In this document: in pieces, positions 2 to 56,942 of the stretch
Layout: every line of letters starts with the position of its first letter
Numbering within the stretch: position 1 is the stretch's first letter
Assembly (NCBI RefSeq): GCF_001550095.1
Contig: NZ_LRUC01000007.1
Coordinates: forward strand, 1-64,000
Length of the DNA: 64,000 bases
Direction of reading: 5' to 3'
Source: Celeribacter ethanolicus
GTDB lineage: Bacteria; Pseudomonadota; Alphaproteobacteria; Rhodobacterales; Rhodobacteraceae
The notes under the pieces: generated by a model
Told to the model about the DNA's origin: nothing
Databases searched by the model: none
What the model saw: the letters and a program-made list of their open reading frames with translations, nothing else
Program-made: the position numbers and the translations under genes

Positions 2-616
2 ACCCGTGTCAAAGACCGGTTCGATCTGCACCCCGAGCGTTTGATCGCAGACACAGCTTATGGATCAGGCCCAATGCTGGGTTGGCTGGTTGAGCGTGAG
101 ATTGCGCCGCATATTCCCGTCATCGACAAGGCGGGGCGCAGCGACGGCACTTGGTCACGCGCGGAGTTCGAATGGGACGCGGAGAATGATCAGTATATCT
201 GCCCCGAAGGTCACGAACTGAAGCAGTTCCGGCGAAACTACTCCGACCCGAACCGAGGTCCGACCGGCAAAGGCACAGCCCGCTATCGAGCTTTGAAGGA
301 GGTTTGCCAAACCTGTCCATCGAAACCAACTTGCTGCCCGAATGCAGAAGCCCGCAAAATCACCCGCGAAGAACACGAAGACGCCCGCCAAGTTGCCCGT
401 GATATCGCCAAAACCCACCAATACGATATCTCGATGAAGCTCCGAAAGAAGGTCGAGATGCTCTTCGCGCATCTCAAACGAATTCTTGGCCTGAACCGGC
501 TCAGGTTACGTGGACCCTGCGGCGCAAATGACGAATTCCTCCTCGCCGCAACCGCCCAAAACCTCCGTAAACTGGCCAAGATCTTTCCTGCGCCGCAGCA
601 ACCGCGAAAAGCCTGA
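2..616 (+). CDS. IS1182-type DDE transposase, C-terminal part (cut by window start)
   Basis: The reading frame is open from base 2, so the protein enters from outside the window and no start is seen. The visible ~204 residues include the motif IADTAYGSG near the middle catalytic Asp, a cysteine cluster (CPEGHEL, then CQTCPSKPTCCP) typical of the insertion in IS1182-like transposases, and a late segment KKVEMLFAHLKR that carries the final catalytic Glu. The enzyme would cut and rejoin the ends of its insertion sequence. It is followed by non-coding DNA that presumably contains the right end of the element (about 617-690), but without the left end I could not define the inverted repeat. Family call is from motif recognition. 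Confidence 0.85.
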   Translation, partial: TRVKDRFDLHPERLIADTAYGSGPMLGWLVEREIAPHIPVIDKAGRSDGTWSRAEFEWDAENDQYICPEGHELKQFRRNYSDPNRGPTGKGTARYRALKEVCQTCPSKPTCCPNAEARKITREEHEDARQVARDIAKTHQYDISMKLRKKVEMLFAHLKRILGLNRLRLRGPCGANDEFLLAATAQNLRKLAKIFPAPQQPRKA

Positions 617-3849: not shown

Positions 3850-4375
3850 ATGATAACGGAAACGCATATTCGGTAATGGGCAGATCGCATTGAAGCGCGT
3901 TCCCTGCTGCCTGTACTTGTTCGTCGCCTGATCCGTGAAACCACTCGGGGTCTGAAGTCGCTTCGCTTTCCCGGCAATGATGCAATCGCCCTCCACGGCG
4001 TTGATGGTGAGGCAGTGAGTGAGATCTCAACCCCGTGGGTGCCGGCTGGAAAGTCGCTATGGGAAATGGGCTGCGATCAATCTCCCTCCACAAAGGCTAA
4101 CGCCGATTTATGATAAGAGGGTCAAAGAATTCGATGCCGAAATCCGGAAGGATACAGCATTTGTCTTTGTGACTCCAAGACGTTGGGCTAGTAAAGAGGA
4201 ATGGCTGACTGAGCGCCGCGCAAGCAGGGACTGGGCAGAGGTCCATGCTTGGGACGCGGTGGATATCGAAACATGGCTGGAAGAGGCTCCCGGGATGCAG
4301 GCATCTCGCAAGATTGCCTTCGCACAGAATTGCTCTGGGCACTTGAAGCGCTTGCGTGGTCTCCAAACCGCGACG
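3850..4375 (+). pseudogene. N-terminal fragment of a very large uncharacterised protein (broken)
   Basis: Starting at ATG 3850 the sequence reads MITETHIR, then a stop (TAA at 3874, one change from a sense codon), then in the same frame WADRIEARSLLPVLVRRLIRE and on through FPGNDAIALHG and WEMGCDQ. An extra T near 4110 shifts the frame, after which it continues with YDKRVKEFDAEIRKD, FVFVTPRRW and DAVDIETWLEEAPG. After ~4310 it jumps to a distant part of the same family (RTELLWALEALAWSP, readable in another frame to ~4375). I recognise this as the N-terminal region of a large (>1000 residue) bacterial protein family of unknown function. The gene has a nonsense mutation, a frameshift and an internal deletion. 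Another piece of the same gene lies at 7863-8795. Confidence 0.6.
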
Positions 4376-5536
4376 TCTTTATGCTCCCGTATTTCGGGCA
4401 GGAATGGATTGTCGCGGATGCGCGCGCTGTGCCGTGATTTTTCGATAAACGGCGTGTCACTTGGCAACGGCGTGGAGGAGGCTGGCTGCGAGAGCGATCC
4501 CATGCCCGCCGTCGGTATCGGTTCTATCGTTGGGGATAACGGCTCCGGCCTGCGCAATGCTTCTGTGAAAGCGGCTACCGTAGGCGTACTCGGGCAGAGC
4601 GTTGACGCCCGCAGCTATCATGGCATCGACAAACCGTTTCTAGAACGGATGTTCGGGTCTCTGGAAAGCATCCTGATCAACCTCATTCACGGCTATACTG
4701 GCCGAAAGGCAGGGGCTTTGCCCGGCTATGATCCGATCAAGAACGGTGTGCTGGATTGTCAGGAGCTCTATGGCCTGATCACGCGCTATCTGGTCGATCA
4801 ATATCCCTATCAGCGACATTACGGTACAACGATGCTTGGGCAACGCCCGATCAAGCAGCTGCAGCTGACGAACCAATTCTATGGTGCCTTTGCAGAAATC
4901 TGCCCGCATGATCGCCGCATTCACCTCGGCTGGAAGAGCAAAGCGACTATCAGTGACGAGGGCGTCAAAGCTTTCGGGCTGCCCTATAACTCTCCCGAAC
5001 TGCAGGCTGTCCGCGATCACGTCCACGGCAAAGTCTCCGTTTTCTCGGACCCCGATTGCACCAACCATGTCACCATCCTGATCGAGGGCCACCCTGATCC
5101 CATTTTGGGCTATCTCACATGGACCGCCATGTCCGATATGACGATCCCCGAATTCCTCGCGATCGCGGAGGCAACGCGGGCAGAAGACCCCGAAGAGACG
5201 GAGGAGTTCGAGGCGCGGCTTGCACGGGTACGGCGCGCGCGGTTCGATCAGCTTCATTTCATCGCGGTCGAGCATAAGCTTGCCCGCAGCTATATGACTA
5301 TCGCAGAGGCCCAGAAGAAGGCTGAAATCGTCACGGCAGGCCAACATTCCCGTCCTTACAGCGCCCTGCCTGGCACCATGGATCCGAGCAGTATCGCGGA
5401 TGAACACGCGACCGCCGGCGTTCGGAAGGTCGGCGCAGGGTTCAAGCCACCTCTGGACGGTTCGGTTGCCCCGAATGAGGTGCCAAACACCACAAAAGCC
5501 CTGCCGAAGCCAAATACGAAGGGGAAACTGTCATGA
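4376..5536 (+). pseudogene. Tn7/Mu-like (TnsB-type) transposase, 5'-truncated
   Basis: The frame is fused to the preceding fragment and turns into an integrase-fold transposase. A GDNGSG motif (Asp codon at 4535) and KPFLERMFGSLE (Glu codon at 4643) are separated by exactly 35 residues, matching the second and third acidic residues of a DD35E active site. The Mu-type C-terminal beta-barrel region follows, ending in a proline-rich tail. The first catalytic Asp and the N-terminal DNA-binding domains are missing, so it should be inactive. Its stop overlaps the start of the next gene (ATGA at 5533), as in tnsB-tnsC operons. Close relatives in Rhodobacterales mobile elements look similar from memory; no search was possible. 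Confidence 0.75.
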
Positions 5537-6513
5537 GTTTCATCAACCTATCGGCGGCTGACAACATTTCGACACTCAAGGCCGCGCATTACAGCTTCCC
5601 GAGGGCGGATCGATTGAGGGAGGACATGGTCTGGATGGTCACGGATTACTACGCCAAAGCCTCCCTGCGTCGCCCCTTTGAGGCGCGTGGTTTGCTGGTC
5701 ACGGGCCCGTCCCGCACGGGCAAGTCGACCGAAATCCGGCGCCAGATCGACGCCTTGAACGATGGCTCCACGATCATGCCGGATGGCCGACCCGCGCGCT
5801 TTGTATCGGTTGTCTTGAAAGGCCTGCTCTCGTGGAAGGATCTCGGGATCCACACTTTGGATCAGGGGCTGAATTACCCCGCCATCGGACGACTTACACA
5901 GCGGGAAGTCTGGGAGCGCGTCGTCATCCAGGCCCGAGAACAGGGTGTGATCGGCATCCATTACGACGAATGTCAGCATATCTTTCCCCGCGTGACTGGA
6001 GAGGCGCGGGCGATGATACTCGACAGCTTCAAATCCCTTTTGAAGCAACCGGAATGGCCGCTCATGCTGATCCTGTCCGGGGTCGACAGCCTCGTTCAGC
6101 ATATAACCAGTGAGGAACAGTTGGCCTATCTGATGCGGCCTATTTCTTTTCCCGAGGTAGCGCTACATCGGCCCGCTGATCTGGCGGAAATGGTCAGCCT
6201 TTGTCATGCCTATGCGGATAAGGCCGGGCTAACGTTTGACGTTCTCAATACGCGGGACTTCTACGAGCGGCTTGCCTGCGCCTGTGCCAATCGGTGGGGT
6301 CTCGTCATCGAGCTACTGATCGACGCATTTGTCATCGCGCTGGATCAGAAGGCAAGCGAACCAGCTCCACAGCATTTCTGTCTCGCCTTCACGCGGAGAA
6401 CGGGCCTGCGGGATGGCTATTCACCCTTCTCGATCGATAGCTATGAGGCGCTATTCTCTCCGCAGAAGATCTTCGAGATATGGGAGAAGCGACGGGCTGC
6501 GATCAGCGCCTGA
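5533..6513 (+). CDS. TnsC/TniB/MuB-like AAA+ ATPase of a Tn7-like transposon
   Basis: 326 residues. The Walker A motif GPSRTGKS lies at residues 58-65 and Walker B (IGIHYDECQ, D145-E146) near the middle, followed by a sensor-like LILSGVDSL segment. This is the layout of the regulator ATPases that choose the target DNA and stimulate TnsB-type transposases. It overlaps the transposase gene by four bases and is followed after 24 bases by a strong terminator and the transposon end. This gene looks intact although its transposase partner is not. No tniQ/tnsD targeting gene follows, so the operon appears reduced. Confidence 0.8.
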   Translation: MSFINLSAADNISTLKAAHYSFPRADRLREDMVWMVTDYYAKASLRRPFEARGLLVTGPSRTGKSTEIRRQIDALNDGSTIMPDGRPARFVSVVLKGLLSWKDLGIHTLDQGLNYPAIGRLTQREVWERVVIQAREQGVIGIHYDECQHIFPRVTGEARAMILDSFKSLLKQPEWPLMLILSGVDSLVQHITSEEQLAYLMRPISFPEVALHRPADLAEMVSLCHAYADKAGLTFDVLNTRDFYERLACACANRWGLVIELLIDAFVIALDQKASEPAPQHFCLAFTRRTGLRDGYSPFSIDSYEALFSPQKIFEIWEKRRAAISA

Positions 6514-53600: not shown

Positions 53601-54893
53601 ATGGTCGACATCGCCACCCGTGTCTACAATCACAAATGGAAGATCGACCCGATCGTCCGCTCCCTGATTGACACGGATTTCTACAAGCTCCTGATGTGCC
53701 AGTCGGTGTTCCGCAACAAACCGGACACCACCGTCACCTTCTCCCTGATCAACCGTTCCAAGGACATCCGCCTCGCCGAGATGATCGACGAGGGCGAGCT
53801 GCGCGAACAACTCGACCACGTCCGTTCCCTGTCGCTCAAACGCGGCGAGAGCACCTGGATGCGCGGCAACACCTTCTACGGCAAACGCCAGATGTTCCGC
53901 TCCGATTTCATGGAGTGGTTCGAGAACCTGCGCTTGCCCGCCTATCAGCTCGAAAAACACGACGGCCAATACGAACTGACCTTCGAAGGCTCCTGGCCCG
54001 AGGTCATGCTCTGGGAAATCCCCGCACTGTCGATCCTCATGGAGCTCCGTTCCCGCGCGGTCCTCGGCCCGATGAAGAAATTCGAGCTTCAGGTGCTCTA
54101 CGCCCGCGCCATGACCAAGCTTTGGGAAAAGGTCAAACGCCTGCAACCGCTCGACGGCCTCAAGATCGCCGATTTCGGCACCCGCCGCCGTCATTCCTAC
54201 CTCTGGCAGGACTGGTGCGTGCAGGCCATGGTCGAGGGCTTGGGCGACAAGTTCACCGGCACCTCGAATTGCCACATCGCCATGATGCGCGATCTCGAAG
54301 CCGTCGGCACCAACGCCCACGAACTGCCCATGGTCTATTCGGCGTTGGCCCGTGACGACAAGGCCTTGGCCGAAGCCCCCTATGACGTGCTGCGCGACTG
54401 GCAGGACGAGCACGAAGGCAACCTGCGCATCATCCTGCCCGACACTTACGGCACCAAAGGCTTCCTCGACCGCGCCCCCGACTGGCTCGCGGGCTGGACC
54501 GGCATCCGCATCGACTCTGGCGATCCGGCGTCCGGCGCGGAACAGGCCATCGCGTGGTGGAAATCCCGTGGCGAAGACCCGACCAGAAAACTCGTCATCT
54601 TCTCCGACGGTCTGGACACCGACAAGATCATCGAGCTGCACCAACAGTTCAGCGGCCGGGTCAAGACCTCCTTCGGCTGGGGCACTCTCTTGACCAACGA
54701 CTTCCGCGGCCTGACCCCCGACGACGCGCTGGCACCGTTTTCACTGGTGTGCAAGGCGGTGTCGGCGAATGGCAAACCGACGGTGAAGCTGTCGGATAAT
54801 CCGAACAAAGCCATGGGGCCGGTGGAAGAGGTCGAGCGGTATAAGCGGGTGTTCGGGGTTGGGGAGCAGGAGGCGATGGAGGTTGTGGTTTAG
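53601..54893 (+). CDS. pncB: Nicotinate phosphoribosyltransferase
   Basis: 430 residues. N-terminal SLIDTDFYKLLMCQSVF, central FGTRRRHSYLWQ and GTSNCHIAMMRDL, and the phosphate-binding IRIDSGDPASGAEQAI are typical of PncB. It joins nicotinate to PRPP with ATP to give NaMN, the Preiss-Handler step after nicotinamidase. An AGGAAGAGGGG sequence precedes the ATG. Its stop codon overlaps by three bases the stop of the HEPN gene on the other strand. Confidence 0.95.
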   Translation: MVDIATRVYNHKWKIDPIVRSLIDTDFYKLLMCQSVFRNKPDTTVTFSLINRSKDIRLAEMIDEGELREQLDHVRSLSLKRGESTWMRGNTFYGKRQMFRSDFMEWFENLRLPAYQLEKHDGQYELTFEGSWPEVMLWEIPALSILMELRSRAVLGPMKKFELQVLYARAMTKLWEKVKRLQPLDGLKIADFGTRRRHSYLWQDWCVQAMVEGLGDKFTGTSNCHIAMMRDLEAVGTNAHELPMVYSALARDDKALAEAPYDVLRDWQDEHEGNLRIILPDTYGTKGFLDRAPDWLAGWTGIRIDSGDPASGAEQAIAWWKSRGEDPTRKLVIFSDGLDTDKIIELHQQFSGRVKTSFGWGTLLTNDFRGLTPDDALAPFSLVCKAVSANGKPTVKLSDNPNKAMGPVEEVERYKRVFGVGEQEAMEVVV

Positions 54894-55285
54894 ATCCTAC
54901 TAAAATCAAAGCCAAAAAGCTTACTAAGAATGTGCTCTACAACTTCGGAAAAGTCTGCAAGTTGGTAATCAGTTATATCAACTGTTGCTCGTTCGTGGAT
55001 TAGCTTGTTTCTTAGATTGTTGTAATGTGATGATTTTTTCCAGTAATCGTCATTAATAGAGATGTGTTTCTTTATTTCTGCAATGACCAAATGCCTTTTT
55101 GTGAACAGCTTTGAAATATCGCCGTCAGAGTAATATTCTTTGTTGTTGACCAAAAATTCTTTGAGGCCAATTTCTAGGTTGCTATCGAGGATGATTAATC
55201 CCAAGCGATTTCTGGAATGGTATTTTTTTCCAGCAAGCACTTCGAACATGCTCATTGCTTCCAAGAGGCCGAGAGTCCAAGGCAT
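54890..55285 (-). CDS. Small HEPN-motif protein, partner of the GHKL ATPase
   Basis: 131 residues, helical and Lys/Asn-rich. NNLRNKLIHERA near residue 95 is an RNxxxH-type motif, the catalytic signature of HEPN ribonucleases in toxins, CRISPR accessory enzymes and abortive-infection proteins. It is followed by a helix like those closing HEPN bundles. The gene starts 26 bases after the stop of the GHKL ATPase gene on the same strand and is AT-rich compared with neighbours, pointing to recent acquisition. ATG 55285 has a weak site; ATG 55255 and 55249 are possible starts. Function is inferred. Confidence 0.6.
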   Translation of the reverse strand: MPWTLGLLEAMSMFEVLAGKKYHSRNRLGLIILDSNLEIGLKEFLVNNKEYYSDGDISKLFTKRHLVIAEIKKHISINDDYWKKSSHYNNLRNKLIHERATVDITDYQLADFSEVVEHILSKLFGFDFSRI

Positions 55286-55311
55286 CTTTTTGGTAATGTG
55301 CGTGTTTTGGT

Positions 55312-56463
55312 CTAATAGACGATCTGCGTAAGACTTTTTTCTTCCTCGAGGGGTAGGAAGAGATACAATTTTTTTAACGAGTCAGGCTTGTCTAATTCTA
55401 TTGGGATAATTGCACCCTTGTCATATTGGAAAATGCCATTCTCTCTATCTACTTTGGTGCGCCTTGAAATCTTTGTAAAATAACTAGTTAGCTCAATCAC
55501 TCTGTCGCGAATTATTTGAAATGTCGGATGACTCCAGTTTATTCCCGCTTTGTTCGAGGTCCAAGGCATGAGTTCTGGACGACCAAATATTTCGACAATA
55601 ACGCGGCACAAAGAAGCGTCTGGGTGTGGTGTGCCGGCTTTCCCGCTAAAATAGCCAACCTCCGGACCCTTTTCATGGGCAAGTATCAGTCTCTTGTTGC
55701 AATAAAAGTATACGCCATAGTTACCTTCCTTCGGATTTCGATCTGCGATCAATCCAGCAGTTATTTTTACATTTACAGTTTCCTCACTTGCTTCGACGGG
55801 TTGAATACTAAACTCCGCTGATCGAGGGGAGTAGTCGGGAGGATATGACCAATTATTAAAATTTTCTTGTAAGATAGGATTGCCATTAACCTTAATAAGA
55901 CATTGAGAATTAATAAAGTTTGCGTAAATTTCGCTTAGTCGATTTTCAAATGCGGTAACTTGGTCTGTAGTAAATCCTTGGCGCAGATTAGAAATATGAA
56001 CTTCTGTAGTTCCTAGTGAAATATCTGATATTTGCTTTGCAATAAGTGACCAATCCCTTTCTTCTGACAGCCATTCAGTGTCTACAACGATGGAATATGT
56101 TGGACCGTTAGCATGTCGACTTCTGATTTCGACCCGTTCTCCAAGAGCAACCCCCGCCCTCTTTCCACCAACACCAAAATTGCCGATTATCTCATTCTTC
56201 ACGTTCTCTCGGCTGGCGCCTGGGGCCACAAGTAGCTCTAATGCATCGGAAGGAACCCCTCCCGCATTGTCCGAAACCCGGATCATTTGTCGATCTACGC
56301 TCAGTAGGACATTTATTTCTAAGGGGGCTGACATTTCAGACATCAGCCAGTGATCAATTGCATTGTCAATCAGTTCGCACAGAGATGTGAGCAGAGAATA
56401 GTCCGCTATGATTGAGTGAAATAGTCGCTTTTGTGGTGTAGCATCGACGGGAAGTTGATCCAT
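55312..56463 (-). CDS. GHKL-type ATPase (Hsp90/MORC/MutL-like), possible defence protein
   Basis: 383 residues. N-box ELIDNAIDH (E30, N34), G1 box VSDNAGGVP (D65) and GNFGVGGKRAGVALG (about 94-108) make a complete Bergerat ATP-binding fold. There is no histidine-kinase phosphoacceptor domain, no membrane segment and no TOPRIM, so it is neither sensor kinase nor gyrase. The second half contains a transducer-like part (NYGVYFYCNKRLILAHEKG) with a Lys-like segment, recalling MORC and Hsp90-type ATPases. It heads a two-gene AT-rich operon with the HEPN protein. A role in defence is a hypothesis. Confidence 0.7.
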   Translation of the reverse strand: MDQLPVDATPQKRLFHSIIADYSLLTSLCELIDNAIDHWLMSEMSAPLEINVLLSVDRQMIRVSDNAGGVPSDALELLVAPGASRENVKNEIIGNFGVGGKRAGVALGERVEIRSRHANGPTYSIVVDTEWLSEERDWSLIAKQISDISLGTTEVHISNLRQGFTTDQVTAFENRLSEIYANFINSQCLIKVNGNPILQENFNNWSYPPDYSPRSAEFSIQPVEASEETVNVKITAGLIADRNPKEGNYGVYFYCNKRLILAHEKGPEVGYFSGKAGTPHPDASLCRVIVEIFGRPELMPWTSNKAGINWSHPTFQIIRDRVIELTSYFTKISRRTKVDRENGIFQYDKGAIIPIELDKPDSLKKLYLFLPLEEEKSLTQIVY

Positions 56464-56525
56464 AGAAATTGCCTTAAATTTTCTAAAAATCTACGATTAT
56501 CGGAGTGATACATTCAAGAAATTAA

Positions 56526-56942
56526 TCACCCCACCTTCCCCCGCAACTTCTTAACCTCCCCCCGTTCCTTCTTCGCCTTAATCCGCCGCTCGACCGACCC
56601 TTTCGTCGGCTTCGTCTTCACTCGCCGTTTCGGCACCACAAGCGCCTTGCGCACCAGTTCCGCCAGACGCTCTCGCGCGATCTCCCTATTCCGCGCCTGC
56701 GACCGGGTCTCTTCGACCTGAATGACAATCGCCCCCTCCTTGGTCCAGCGCCGCCCCGCCAGACGGCGCAGGCGGTTTTTCACAGGCTCCGGCAGGTTCG
56801 GCGAGCGCGCCGCTTCGAACCGCAATTCGACCGCTGTGGAGACCTTGTTCACATTCTGCCCACCAGGACCGGAGGAGCGGACGAACTGCTCGGTGATCTC
56901 CCAATCGGCGATCTCGATCTGGTCGGTGACGGTGAGGGGCAT
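56526..56942 (-). CDS. arfB: Alternative ribosome-rescue factor ArfB (YaeJ)
   Basis: 138 residues. The release-factor loop VRSSGPGGQNVNKVSTAVEL carries the GGQ motif near residue 28, and the basic tail (RVKTKPTKGSVERRIKAKKERG) is the part that enters the empty mRNA channel. It hydrolyses peptidyl-tRNA on stalled ribosomes. It stands alone next to the AT-rich island. Confidence 0.93.
   Translation of the reverse strand: MPLTVTDQIEIADWEITEQFVRSSGPGGQNVNKVSTAVELRFEAARSPNLPEPVKNRLRRLAGRRWTKEGAIVIQVEETRSQARNREIARERLAELVRKALVVPKRRVKTKPTKGSVERRIKAKKERGEVKKLRGKVG

What the first reader, a model, noticed from the sequence alone, without database searches (positions are those of the whole stretch)
54890..56463. 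AT-rich two-gene island pairing a GHKL ATPase with an HEPN-motif protein
The larger gene has a complete Bergerat ATP-binding fold (ELIDNAIDH, DNAGGVP, GNFGVGGKRAG) without kinase, TOPRIM or membrane parts. The smaller has the RNxxxH HEPN motif (RNKLIH). Both are AT-rich against a GC-rich background, on one strand, and dropped precisely between pncB and arfB so that the two stop codons overlap. HEPN ribonucleases are the effectors of many anti-phage systems, and GHKL ATPases occur as sensors or switches; this exact pair matches no named system I know. Model: the ATPase senses infection and licenses the RNase.
Basis: partly seen in the sequence, partly recalled or inferred. Interest (0 to 1): 0.78.

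Follow-up and report, generated by a model that had tools for sequence, protein, structure and literature searches.

The report
Split MORC-like ATPase–HEPN defence gene
What looked like two neighbouring genes is one gene cut in two by a shift of reading frame: an ATP-driven switch joined to a probable RNA-cutting domain, of a kind often found among bacterial anti-virus genes, lying in a chromosomal slot where related species keep other small foreign genes.

Summary
Motifs and coordinates are right, but "two genes" is not. All seven intact relatives found are single ORFs of 524-530 codons: GHKL ATPase first, helical HEPN-like domain last. The window copy is that gene with its frame changed at an in-phase A7 tract (55369-55375). 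It is most likely a single-protein defence effector of MORC/paraMORC type (ATPase switch controlling an RNase), split in this genome. Five of nine members lie beside recognised defence genes (Septu three times, SIR2-HerA, a DndH/HerA-like gene); four, the window's included, stand among housekeeping genes. R-x4-H is kept in six of nine; the three beside Septu lack the His. The pncB-arfB gap is an accessory slot: in 14 of 20 genus genomes it holds 0.9-1.9 kb of AT-rich, mostly differing cargo, including AbiD. HEPN(Ymh)-paraMORC fusions were described in silico in 2013, so this is a new variant of a known kind, with a HEPN that the Ymh profile does not match. A 7-bp stem lies 7 nt after the A7 tract, so programmed -1 frameshifting or frame switching is not excluded; a recent lesion or a sequence error is likelier. 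No activity was tested.

The parts
55312..56463 (-). GHKL (MORC/paraMORC-like) ATPase half of the split gene, 383 codons; the last 18 codons after the A7 tract are out of frame with relatives
   Evidence: Pfam HATPase_c_3 E 5.4e-10; 40-55% identity to intact relatives over residues 5-372
54890..55381 (-). Linker and HEPN-like half in the -1 frame, with RNKLIH; open from after a stop at 55382-55384, first ATG at 55285
   Evidence: 35-47% identity to the C-terminal part of intact relatives; motif conserved with G203, G942, G676
55369..55375 (-). A7 tract (ttA AAA AAA in the GHKL frame) at which the reading frame changes
   Evidence: Position and phase; junction residues KKIVSLPTPRGRKK of the HEPN frame match KRVVDLPLPRGRKK of G942
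55340..55361 (-). Stem-loop of 7 bp with an 8-nt loop, 7 nt downstream of the A7 tract
   Evidence: such perfect stems at 0.46% of positions of the gene, 5% if G-U pairs are allowed
54894..56525 (.). Accessory slot between pncB (53601-54893, +) and arfB (56526-56942, -)
   Evidence: 17 of 20 genus genomes have the convergent pair in the fetched stretch; 14 of these hold 0.9-1.9 kb at 40-48% GC

Best explanation
The island is one horizontally acquired gene for a single-protein anti-phage effector: an N-terminal MORC/paraMORC-like GHKL ATPase with its middle (S5-like) part, a linker, and a C-terminal HEPN-like domain. Proposed mechanism (inferred): the GHKL part dimerises on ATP and acts as a clamp or sensor for a sign of infection, probably nucleic acid; ATP-driven closure brings two HEPN domains together or frees them, and they cleave RNA, stopping phage growth or the cell. 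Shown by computation: the fusion in relatives, the ATPase motifs, the R-x4-H motif, defence neighbours of relatives, the accessory slot. Not shown: ATP hydrolysis, RNase activity, defence. In this genome the frame changes at the A7 tract, so ordinary translation gives a GHKL protein without HEPN; most likely a recent inactivating frameshift or an indel error in the draft sequence.
For: Seven of seven intact relatives are single ORFs and both window frames align with them in order. GHKL motif residues E, N, D, the glycine-rich lid and R and H of the HEPN motif are invariant in the four intact proteins of alignment A4. PDB sequence search puts MORC3 first (E 1.9e-6). PADLOC: Septu PtuA/PtuB beside the Rhizobium copy (E 2e-242, 4.9e-121) and a DndH/HerA-like gene beside the KSB1 copy (E 9e-12); PtuA/PtuB beside G1220, SIR2 and HerA beside G1163, E1-E2 and JAB genes near G1117. 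Pfam HEPN_RiboL-PSP is the best family for the G942 C-terminal domain (E 0.0018). A GHKL ATPase fused to a nuclease is a tested defence protein (VcSduA, PMC12137116, passages). No second lesion in the HEPN half.
Against: HEPN profile hit is below its cut-off (18.6 of 28.4 bits) and in 1 of 9 members; the PDB profile search with the HEPN half gave only designed helical proteins and RepA; the structure model is poor (mean pLDDT 41). His is lost in 3 of 9 members. Four of nine members have no recognised defence neighbour (for three of them). PADLOC and NCBIfam have no defence model for either part. Three further neighbours of the KSB1 copy gave no PADLOC hit.
Confidence: 0.6

Rival explanations
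1. Programmed -1 frameshifting, or reversible frame switching at the A7 tract, makes two products from one gene: GHKL-only protein and a smaller amount of GHKL-HEPN, so that the dose of the RNase is kept low or switchable.
For: A AAA AAA lies in the phase that -1 slippage needs and a 7-bp stem follows after 7 nt; -1 slippage there would lead from the GHKL frame into the HEPN frame at the residues that match G942. HEPN half without a stop, R and H kept, 23 of 27 invariant columns kept. The slot of the sister genome G001 holds a gene split at a G10 tract.
Against: The four intact relatives compared at the junction have no such tract and all seven need no shift. A7 runs occur by chance in AT-rich genes (two T7/A7 runs in this gap; 8 of the other 15 gaps scanned hold an A7 or T7). 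Stems of 7 pairs with G-U allowed follow 5% of positions and 9% of windows fold as well. The HEPN half may be evolving faster (25 against 13 changes, p 0.07; 21 against 14, p 0.31).
Confidence: 0.17
2. The gene is a GHKL-HEPN stress or chaperone-like protein (Sacsin-like), not a defence protein.
For: Same order of domains as Sacsin; weak NCBIfam sacsin-type ATP-binding hit (E 2.9e-4, 21.3 bits against cut-off 50). Four of nine members in what look like housekeeping contexts. Loss of His in some members, as reported for human Sacsin (PMC3710099, passages).
Against: The PDB profile search ranks MORC above HSP90 proteins. Patchy distribution and defence neighbours in 5 of 9.
Confidence: 0.12
3. 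Two separate genes, as first read: HEPN translated on its own from the ATG at 55285, beside a separate GHKL protein.
For: The ATG lies 27 nt after the GHKL stop, just before the conserved start (PWT) of the HEPN domain.
Against: No relative found has separate genes; 7 of 7 intact ones are fused; no evident ribosome-binding site; the frame is conserved with relatives upstream of the ATG, in the linker.
Confidence: 0.06

Closest known systems
paraMORC-Ymh (HEPN, PF09509) fusions, Anantharaman et al. 2013 (PMC3710099; passages seen)
   Same: GHKL ATPase of the MORC/paraMORC kind with a HEPN domain fused to its C-terminus; proposed there as an analogue of PrrC and RloC
   Different: The HEPN here is not matched by PF09509 (in four genomes; in nine members); described there within restriction-modification neighbourhoods, whereas the window copy stands alone; predicted only, no named system
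VcSduA, Shedu type I-D / paraMORC3 (PMC12137116; passages seen)
   Same: One protein, N-terminal GHKL ATPase controlling a C-terminal nuclease; tested defence
   Different: Its effector is a PD-(D/E)xK DNase (DUF4263), here a HEPN-like domain
Prokaryotic MORC and paraMORC1-5 (PMC2292703; passages seen)
   Same: GHKL with S5-type part, patchy spread, defence neighbourhoods; MORC3 is the top PDB match
   Different: Passages seen describe RE-fold, TIR and unknown C-termini, not HEPN; usual SFII helicase neighbours absent here
Sacsin (passages in PMC3710099)
   Same: HSP90-like GHKL ATPase and C-terminal HEPN in one polypeptide
   Different: Giant eukaryotic protein with three ATPase modules, ubiquitin-like and DnaJ parts; our sequence is closer to MORC

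Membership tests
GHKL ATPase of MORC/paraMORC kind | Bergerat motifs (E/N, DxGG, glycine lid) | tested here: met
   Pfam HATPase_c_3 above cut-off; residues invariant in four intact relatives
GHKL ATPase of MORC/paraMORC kind | MORC motif GhXhhpXXRhl in the S5 domain (wording from PMC2292703) | tested here: inconclusive
   GVYFYCNKRLI in the window fits except the polar position (read by eye)
GHKL ATPase of MORC/paraMORC kind | restriction-modification neighbourhood with SFII helicase | tested here: not met
   pncB and arfB beside the window copy; some relatives have a DNA methyltransferase nearby
HEPN superfamily | R-x4-6-H motif | tested here: met
   RNKLIH in the window; kept in 6 of 9 members, His lost in 3 of 9
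HEPN superfamily | profile match to a HEPN family | tested here: inconclusive
   HEPN_RiboL-PSP E 0.0018, below cut-off, 1 of 9 members; none for the window's own sequence
HEPN superfamily | all-helical HEPN fold | tested here: inconclusive
   C-terminus of the KSB1 model helical at about pLDDT 55-82, model poor overall; fold search could not be run
HEPN superfamily | RNase activity | not testable with these tools
   needs the bench
paraMORC-Ymh fusion | HEPN fused to the C-terminus of a paraMORC ATPase | tested here: met
   7 of 7 intact relatives; broken in the window
paraMORC-Ymh fusion | HEPN belongs to Ymh (PF09509) | tested here: not met
   no match at the loci in G000, G942, G203, G676 at E up to 10; not among families for nine members at E up to 5
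Shedu type I-D (VcSduA) | C-terminal DUF4263 PD-(D/E)xK nuclease | tested here: not met
   no such Pfam match in full-length relatives or the window
Programmed -1 frameshift gene | slippery heptamer in phase with a stem 5-9 nt downstream | tested here: met
   A AAA AAA, 7-nt spacer, 7-bp stem; definition from general knowledge
Programmed -1 frameshift gene | signal conserved among relatives | tested here: not met
   four intact relatives compared lack the tract; all seven read through in one frame
Two-gene sensor-effector system | separate genes in relatives | tested here: not met
   7 of 7 intact relatives are one ORF; the ninth member (Rhizobium) is broken elsewhere

The most novel reading that the evidence does not exclude
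The gene is a defence effector whose RNase half is placed under frame control: slippage at the in-phase A7 tract, helped by the stem, makes mostly GHKL-only protein and a little GHKL-HEPN, or the tract switches the effector on and off between cells. With the G10-split HNH gene in the same slot of a sister species, the pncB-arfB slot would be a place where small defence cargo is held under homopolymer control.
Probability: 0.17. Interest if true: 0.7.

Novelty: new variant of a known kind. Interest (0 to 1): 0.45.

Why it matters
It defines a compact MORC-like ATPase-HEPN architecture with intact homologues ready for a one-gene phage test, and would link MORC-type switches to an RNA-cutting effector rather than to a DNase. 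The loss of the catalytic His in the members beside Septu offers a natural contrast between effector and non-catalytic forms. The pncB-arfB gap looks like a slot for small cargo that I found no report of: one search for pncB, hotspot and defense listed a single, unrelated paper.

Tried and rejected
Viral contigs: three scans (P0001, the G203 protein, P0002) found no relative. Phage records: two distant GHKL hits only. PDB search with the HEPN half gave designed helical proteins and RepA, read as chance. PADLOC has no model for either part; NCBIfam gave only a weak sacsin-type and a weak histidine-kinase hit to the ATPase half. A two-gene operon was rejected on the fused relatives. A high rate of sequence error was tested on the contig and not seen. 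Repeats around the insert: one 23-nt direct pair at 74% and one imperfect inverted pair, neither flanking the insert. Promoter- and terminator-like sites were near shuffle level. The AF2 model is too poor to use.

Full report
What is there. The first has a GHKL ATPase domain (HATPase_c_3, E 5.4e-10). The second holds RNKLIH and ends in a stop that overlaps the pncB stop. The gap is 41.0% GC against 59.4% for the window.

One gene, not two. A KSB1 MAG (L001) has a single 528-aa ORF. The first window ORF aligns with its residues 10-369 (40%, E 9e-89), the second frame with 373-527 (35%, E 1e-24). Later searches gave six more intact single ORFs: G203 (530 aa), G676 (530), G942 (525), G1163 (530), G1220 (524) and G1117 (524). 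None of the seven is split. A ninth copy, on a Rhizobium leguminosarum plasmid (L011), is broken too, but elsewhere, inside the GHKL half. In G942, the closest relative, the junction reads KRVVDLPLPRGRKK; the window's HEPN frame reads KKIVSLPTPRGRKK from the A7 tract on. The frames meet at the A7 tract, 55369-55375.

How many genomes. GHKL or fusion queries were run on 101, 385, 398, 295, 199 and 40 genomes (some genomes recur; thresholds 1e-3, 1e-12 or 1e-30). Matches running through the HEPN half were seen in the window's genome, G203, G676, G942, G1163, G1220 and G1117. Many other hits cover only the common GHKL part and were not counted as members.

Is the break real. In the 69.5-kb contig, 28 conserved ORFs (10,136 aa) compared with G004, and 14 each with G016 and G007, showed no split gene. 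So errors are not frequent, but one cannot be excluded. The A7 lies as ttA AAA AAA in the GHKL frame; 7 nt on is a perfect 7-bp stem with an 8-nt loop. Stems of 7 or more Watson-Crick pairs start 4-10 nt after only 0.46% of positions of this gene; with G-U pairs it is 5%, and 9% of windows fold as well. The HEPN half has no stop, keeps R and H, and keeps 23 of 27 columns invariant in four intact relatives (GHKL half: 88 of 92). Relative-rate counts against G942 are 21 to 14 (p 0.31, outgroup G203) and 25 to 13 (p 0.07, outgroup G676) in the HEPN half and about even in the GHKL half; the contrast between halves is p 0.53 and 0.04, a weak hint of relaxed constraint. I read this as a recent lesion or a sequence error, with programmed or switchable frameshifting not excluded.

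The HEPN assignment. No HEPN profile reaches its cut-off. The best is HEPN_RiboL-PSP, E 0.0018 for the G942 domain over the stretch with R-x4-H, in 1 of 9 members scanned. The one structure model (KSB1 protein, three-row alignment) is poor (mean pLDDT 41), its C-terminus all helical at about 55-82. The motif is RNKLIH (window, G203), RNKLVH (G942, G676), RCDLIH (KSB1), RCDLVH (G1163), but RHDLTF in G1220 and G1117 and REDLFF in Rhizobium. Arg is present in 9 of 9, His in 6 of 9. The three without His all lie beside Septu genes; G1220 and G1117 share a 5.2-kb block at 98.3% and count as one event. In a tree of the GHKL part, Rhizobium, G1163, G1220 and G1117 form one clade (0.98) and the window pairs with G942 (0.999).

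Neighbours. PADLOC recognises PtuA and PtuB and an Aga-REase-like gene at the Rhizobium copy and a DndH/HerA-like gene beside the KSB1 copy, whose three other scanned neighbours gave nothing; PtuA and PtuB beside G1220, SIR2 and HerA beside G1163, E1-E2 and JAB genes near G1117. PtuA and PtuB beside G1117 rest on its ORFs and the near-identical block. Ten chosen ORFs around G942, G203 and G676 gave only Csa3-model hits for one protein, which I read as an ArsR-type regulator. The window's own neighbours were not scanned. So 5 of 9 members have recognised defence neighbours and 4 of 9 show none. More distant GHKL relatives sit in loci annotated as Dpt, DISARM and methyltransferases.

The slot. 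arfB was found in 20 of 20 genomes of the genus. The convergent pncB-arfB pair is within the fetched stretch in 17 of 20 (not in G005, G015, G006). One gap is empty (98 bp, G008), one is 14 kb and one holds a 1-kb hydrolase at ordinary GC; the other 14, the window included, hold 0.9-1.9 kb at 40-48% GC. Pfam was run on 18 cargo proteins and PADLOC on 10: AbiD (E 1.4e-72), an M78 peptidase (capP-like), an HNH gene, an AAA_16 ATPase, a helix-turn-helix protein, a weak HEC-07-like hit, a ParA-type ATPase, and several without any match. By eye only G004 and G014 share a cargo gene. In seven genomes, the window's included, a cargo stop overlaps a core stop by 4 nt. Outside the genus, 8 of 29 loci checked have pncB within 1.5 kb of arfB, with gaps of 14 to 1,323 bp and mixed GC. 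The slot explains the position of the gene and adds a defence flavour; not every cargo is defence.

What is known. HEPN domains of the Ymh family fused to the C-termini of paraMORC ATPases in restriction neighbourhoods were reported in 2013 as analogues of PrrC and RloC (PMC3710099, passages). PF09509 does not match the present loci in the four genomes tested or the nine HEPN halves. VcSduA, a GHKL ATPase with a C-terminal DNase, protects against phages and needs its ATPase residue (PMC12137116, passages). Prokaryotic MORC and paraMORC were defined in 2008 (PMC2292703, passages). DefensePredictor mentions HEPN systems and an HATPase label; the passages seen do not join the two (PMC13092281). 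Searches with MORC, GHKL, HEPN, paraMORC, HATPase and antiphage terms listed no named GHKL-HEPN system that I could see; listings were read, and passages of four papers. This says nothing about papers outside that library.

Verdict. A new variant of a known kind: a MORC-like GHKL ATPase fused to a HEPN-like domain that the Ymh profile does not match, probably a single-protein RNase defence effector, present here as a frame-broken copy in an accessory slot. Function is inferred throughout.

Noticed in passing
window 54894-56525; L086-L104: The pncB-arfB gap is an accessory slot in this genus: 14 of 17 gaps seen hold 0.9-1.9 kb of AT-rich cargo, mostly different, one is empty.
   Followed up: partly
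L089:15282-16663 (G001): Cargo gene in the same slot (DGQQR motif in the first piece, HNH domain in the second) is split at a G10 tract; no G run of 9 or more in 464 kb of other sequence. Looks like phase variation or a tract-length error.
   Followed up: partly
L011, L169, L170: The three GHKL-HEPN members beside Septu ptuAB lack the catalytic His of R-x4-H, members elsewhere keep it.
   Followed up: partly
L012:280-2558: Filamentous phage PfAC20 of Pseudomonas carries a distant GHKL protein followed by an unknown gene and a cytosine methyltransferase.
   Followed up: no
window 41-613 and 5533-6510: A DDE transposase fragment and a TniB-like ATPase. The ORFs at 4019 and 7926 have no Pfam match; I suspect a transposon inside a larger gene, untested.
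   Followed up: no
L004, L005: More distant GHKL proteins in other genomes are followed by a gene of about 323 codons in both loci, a possible two-gene unit.
   Followed up: no
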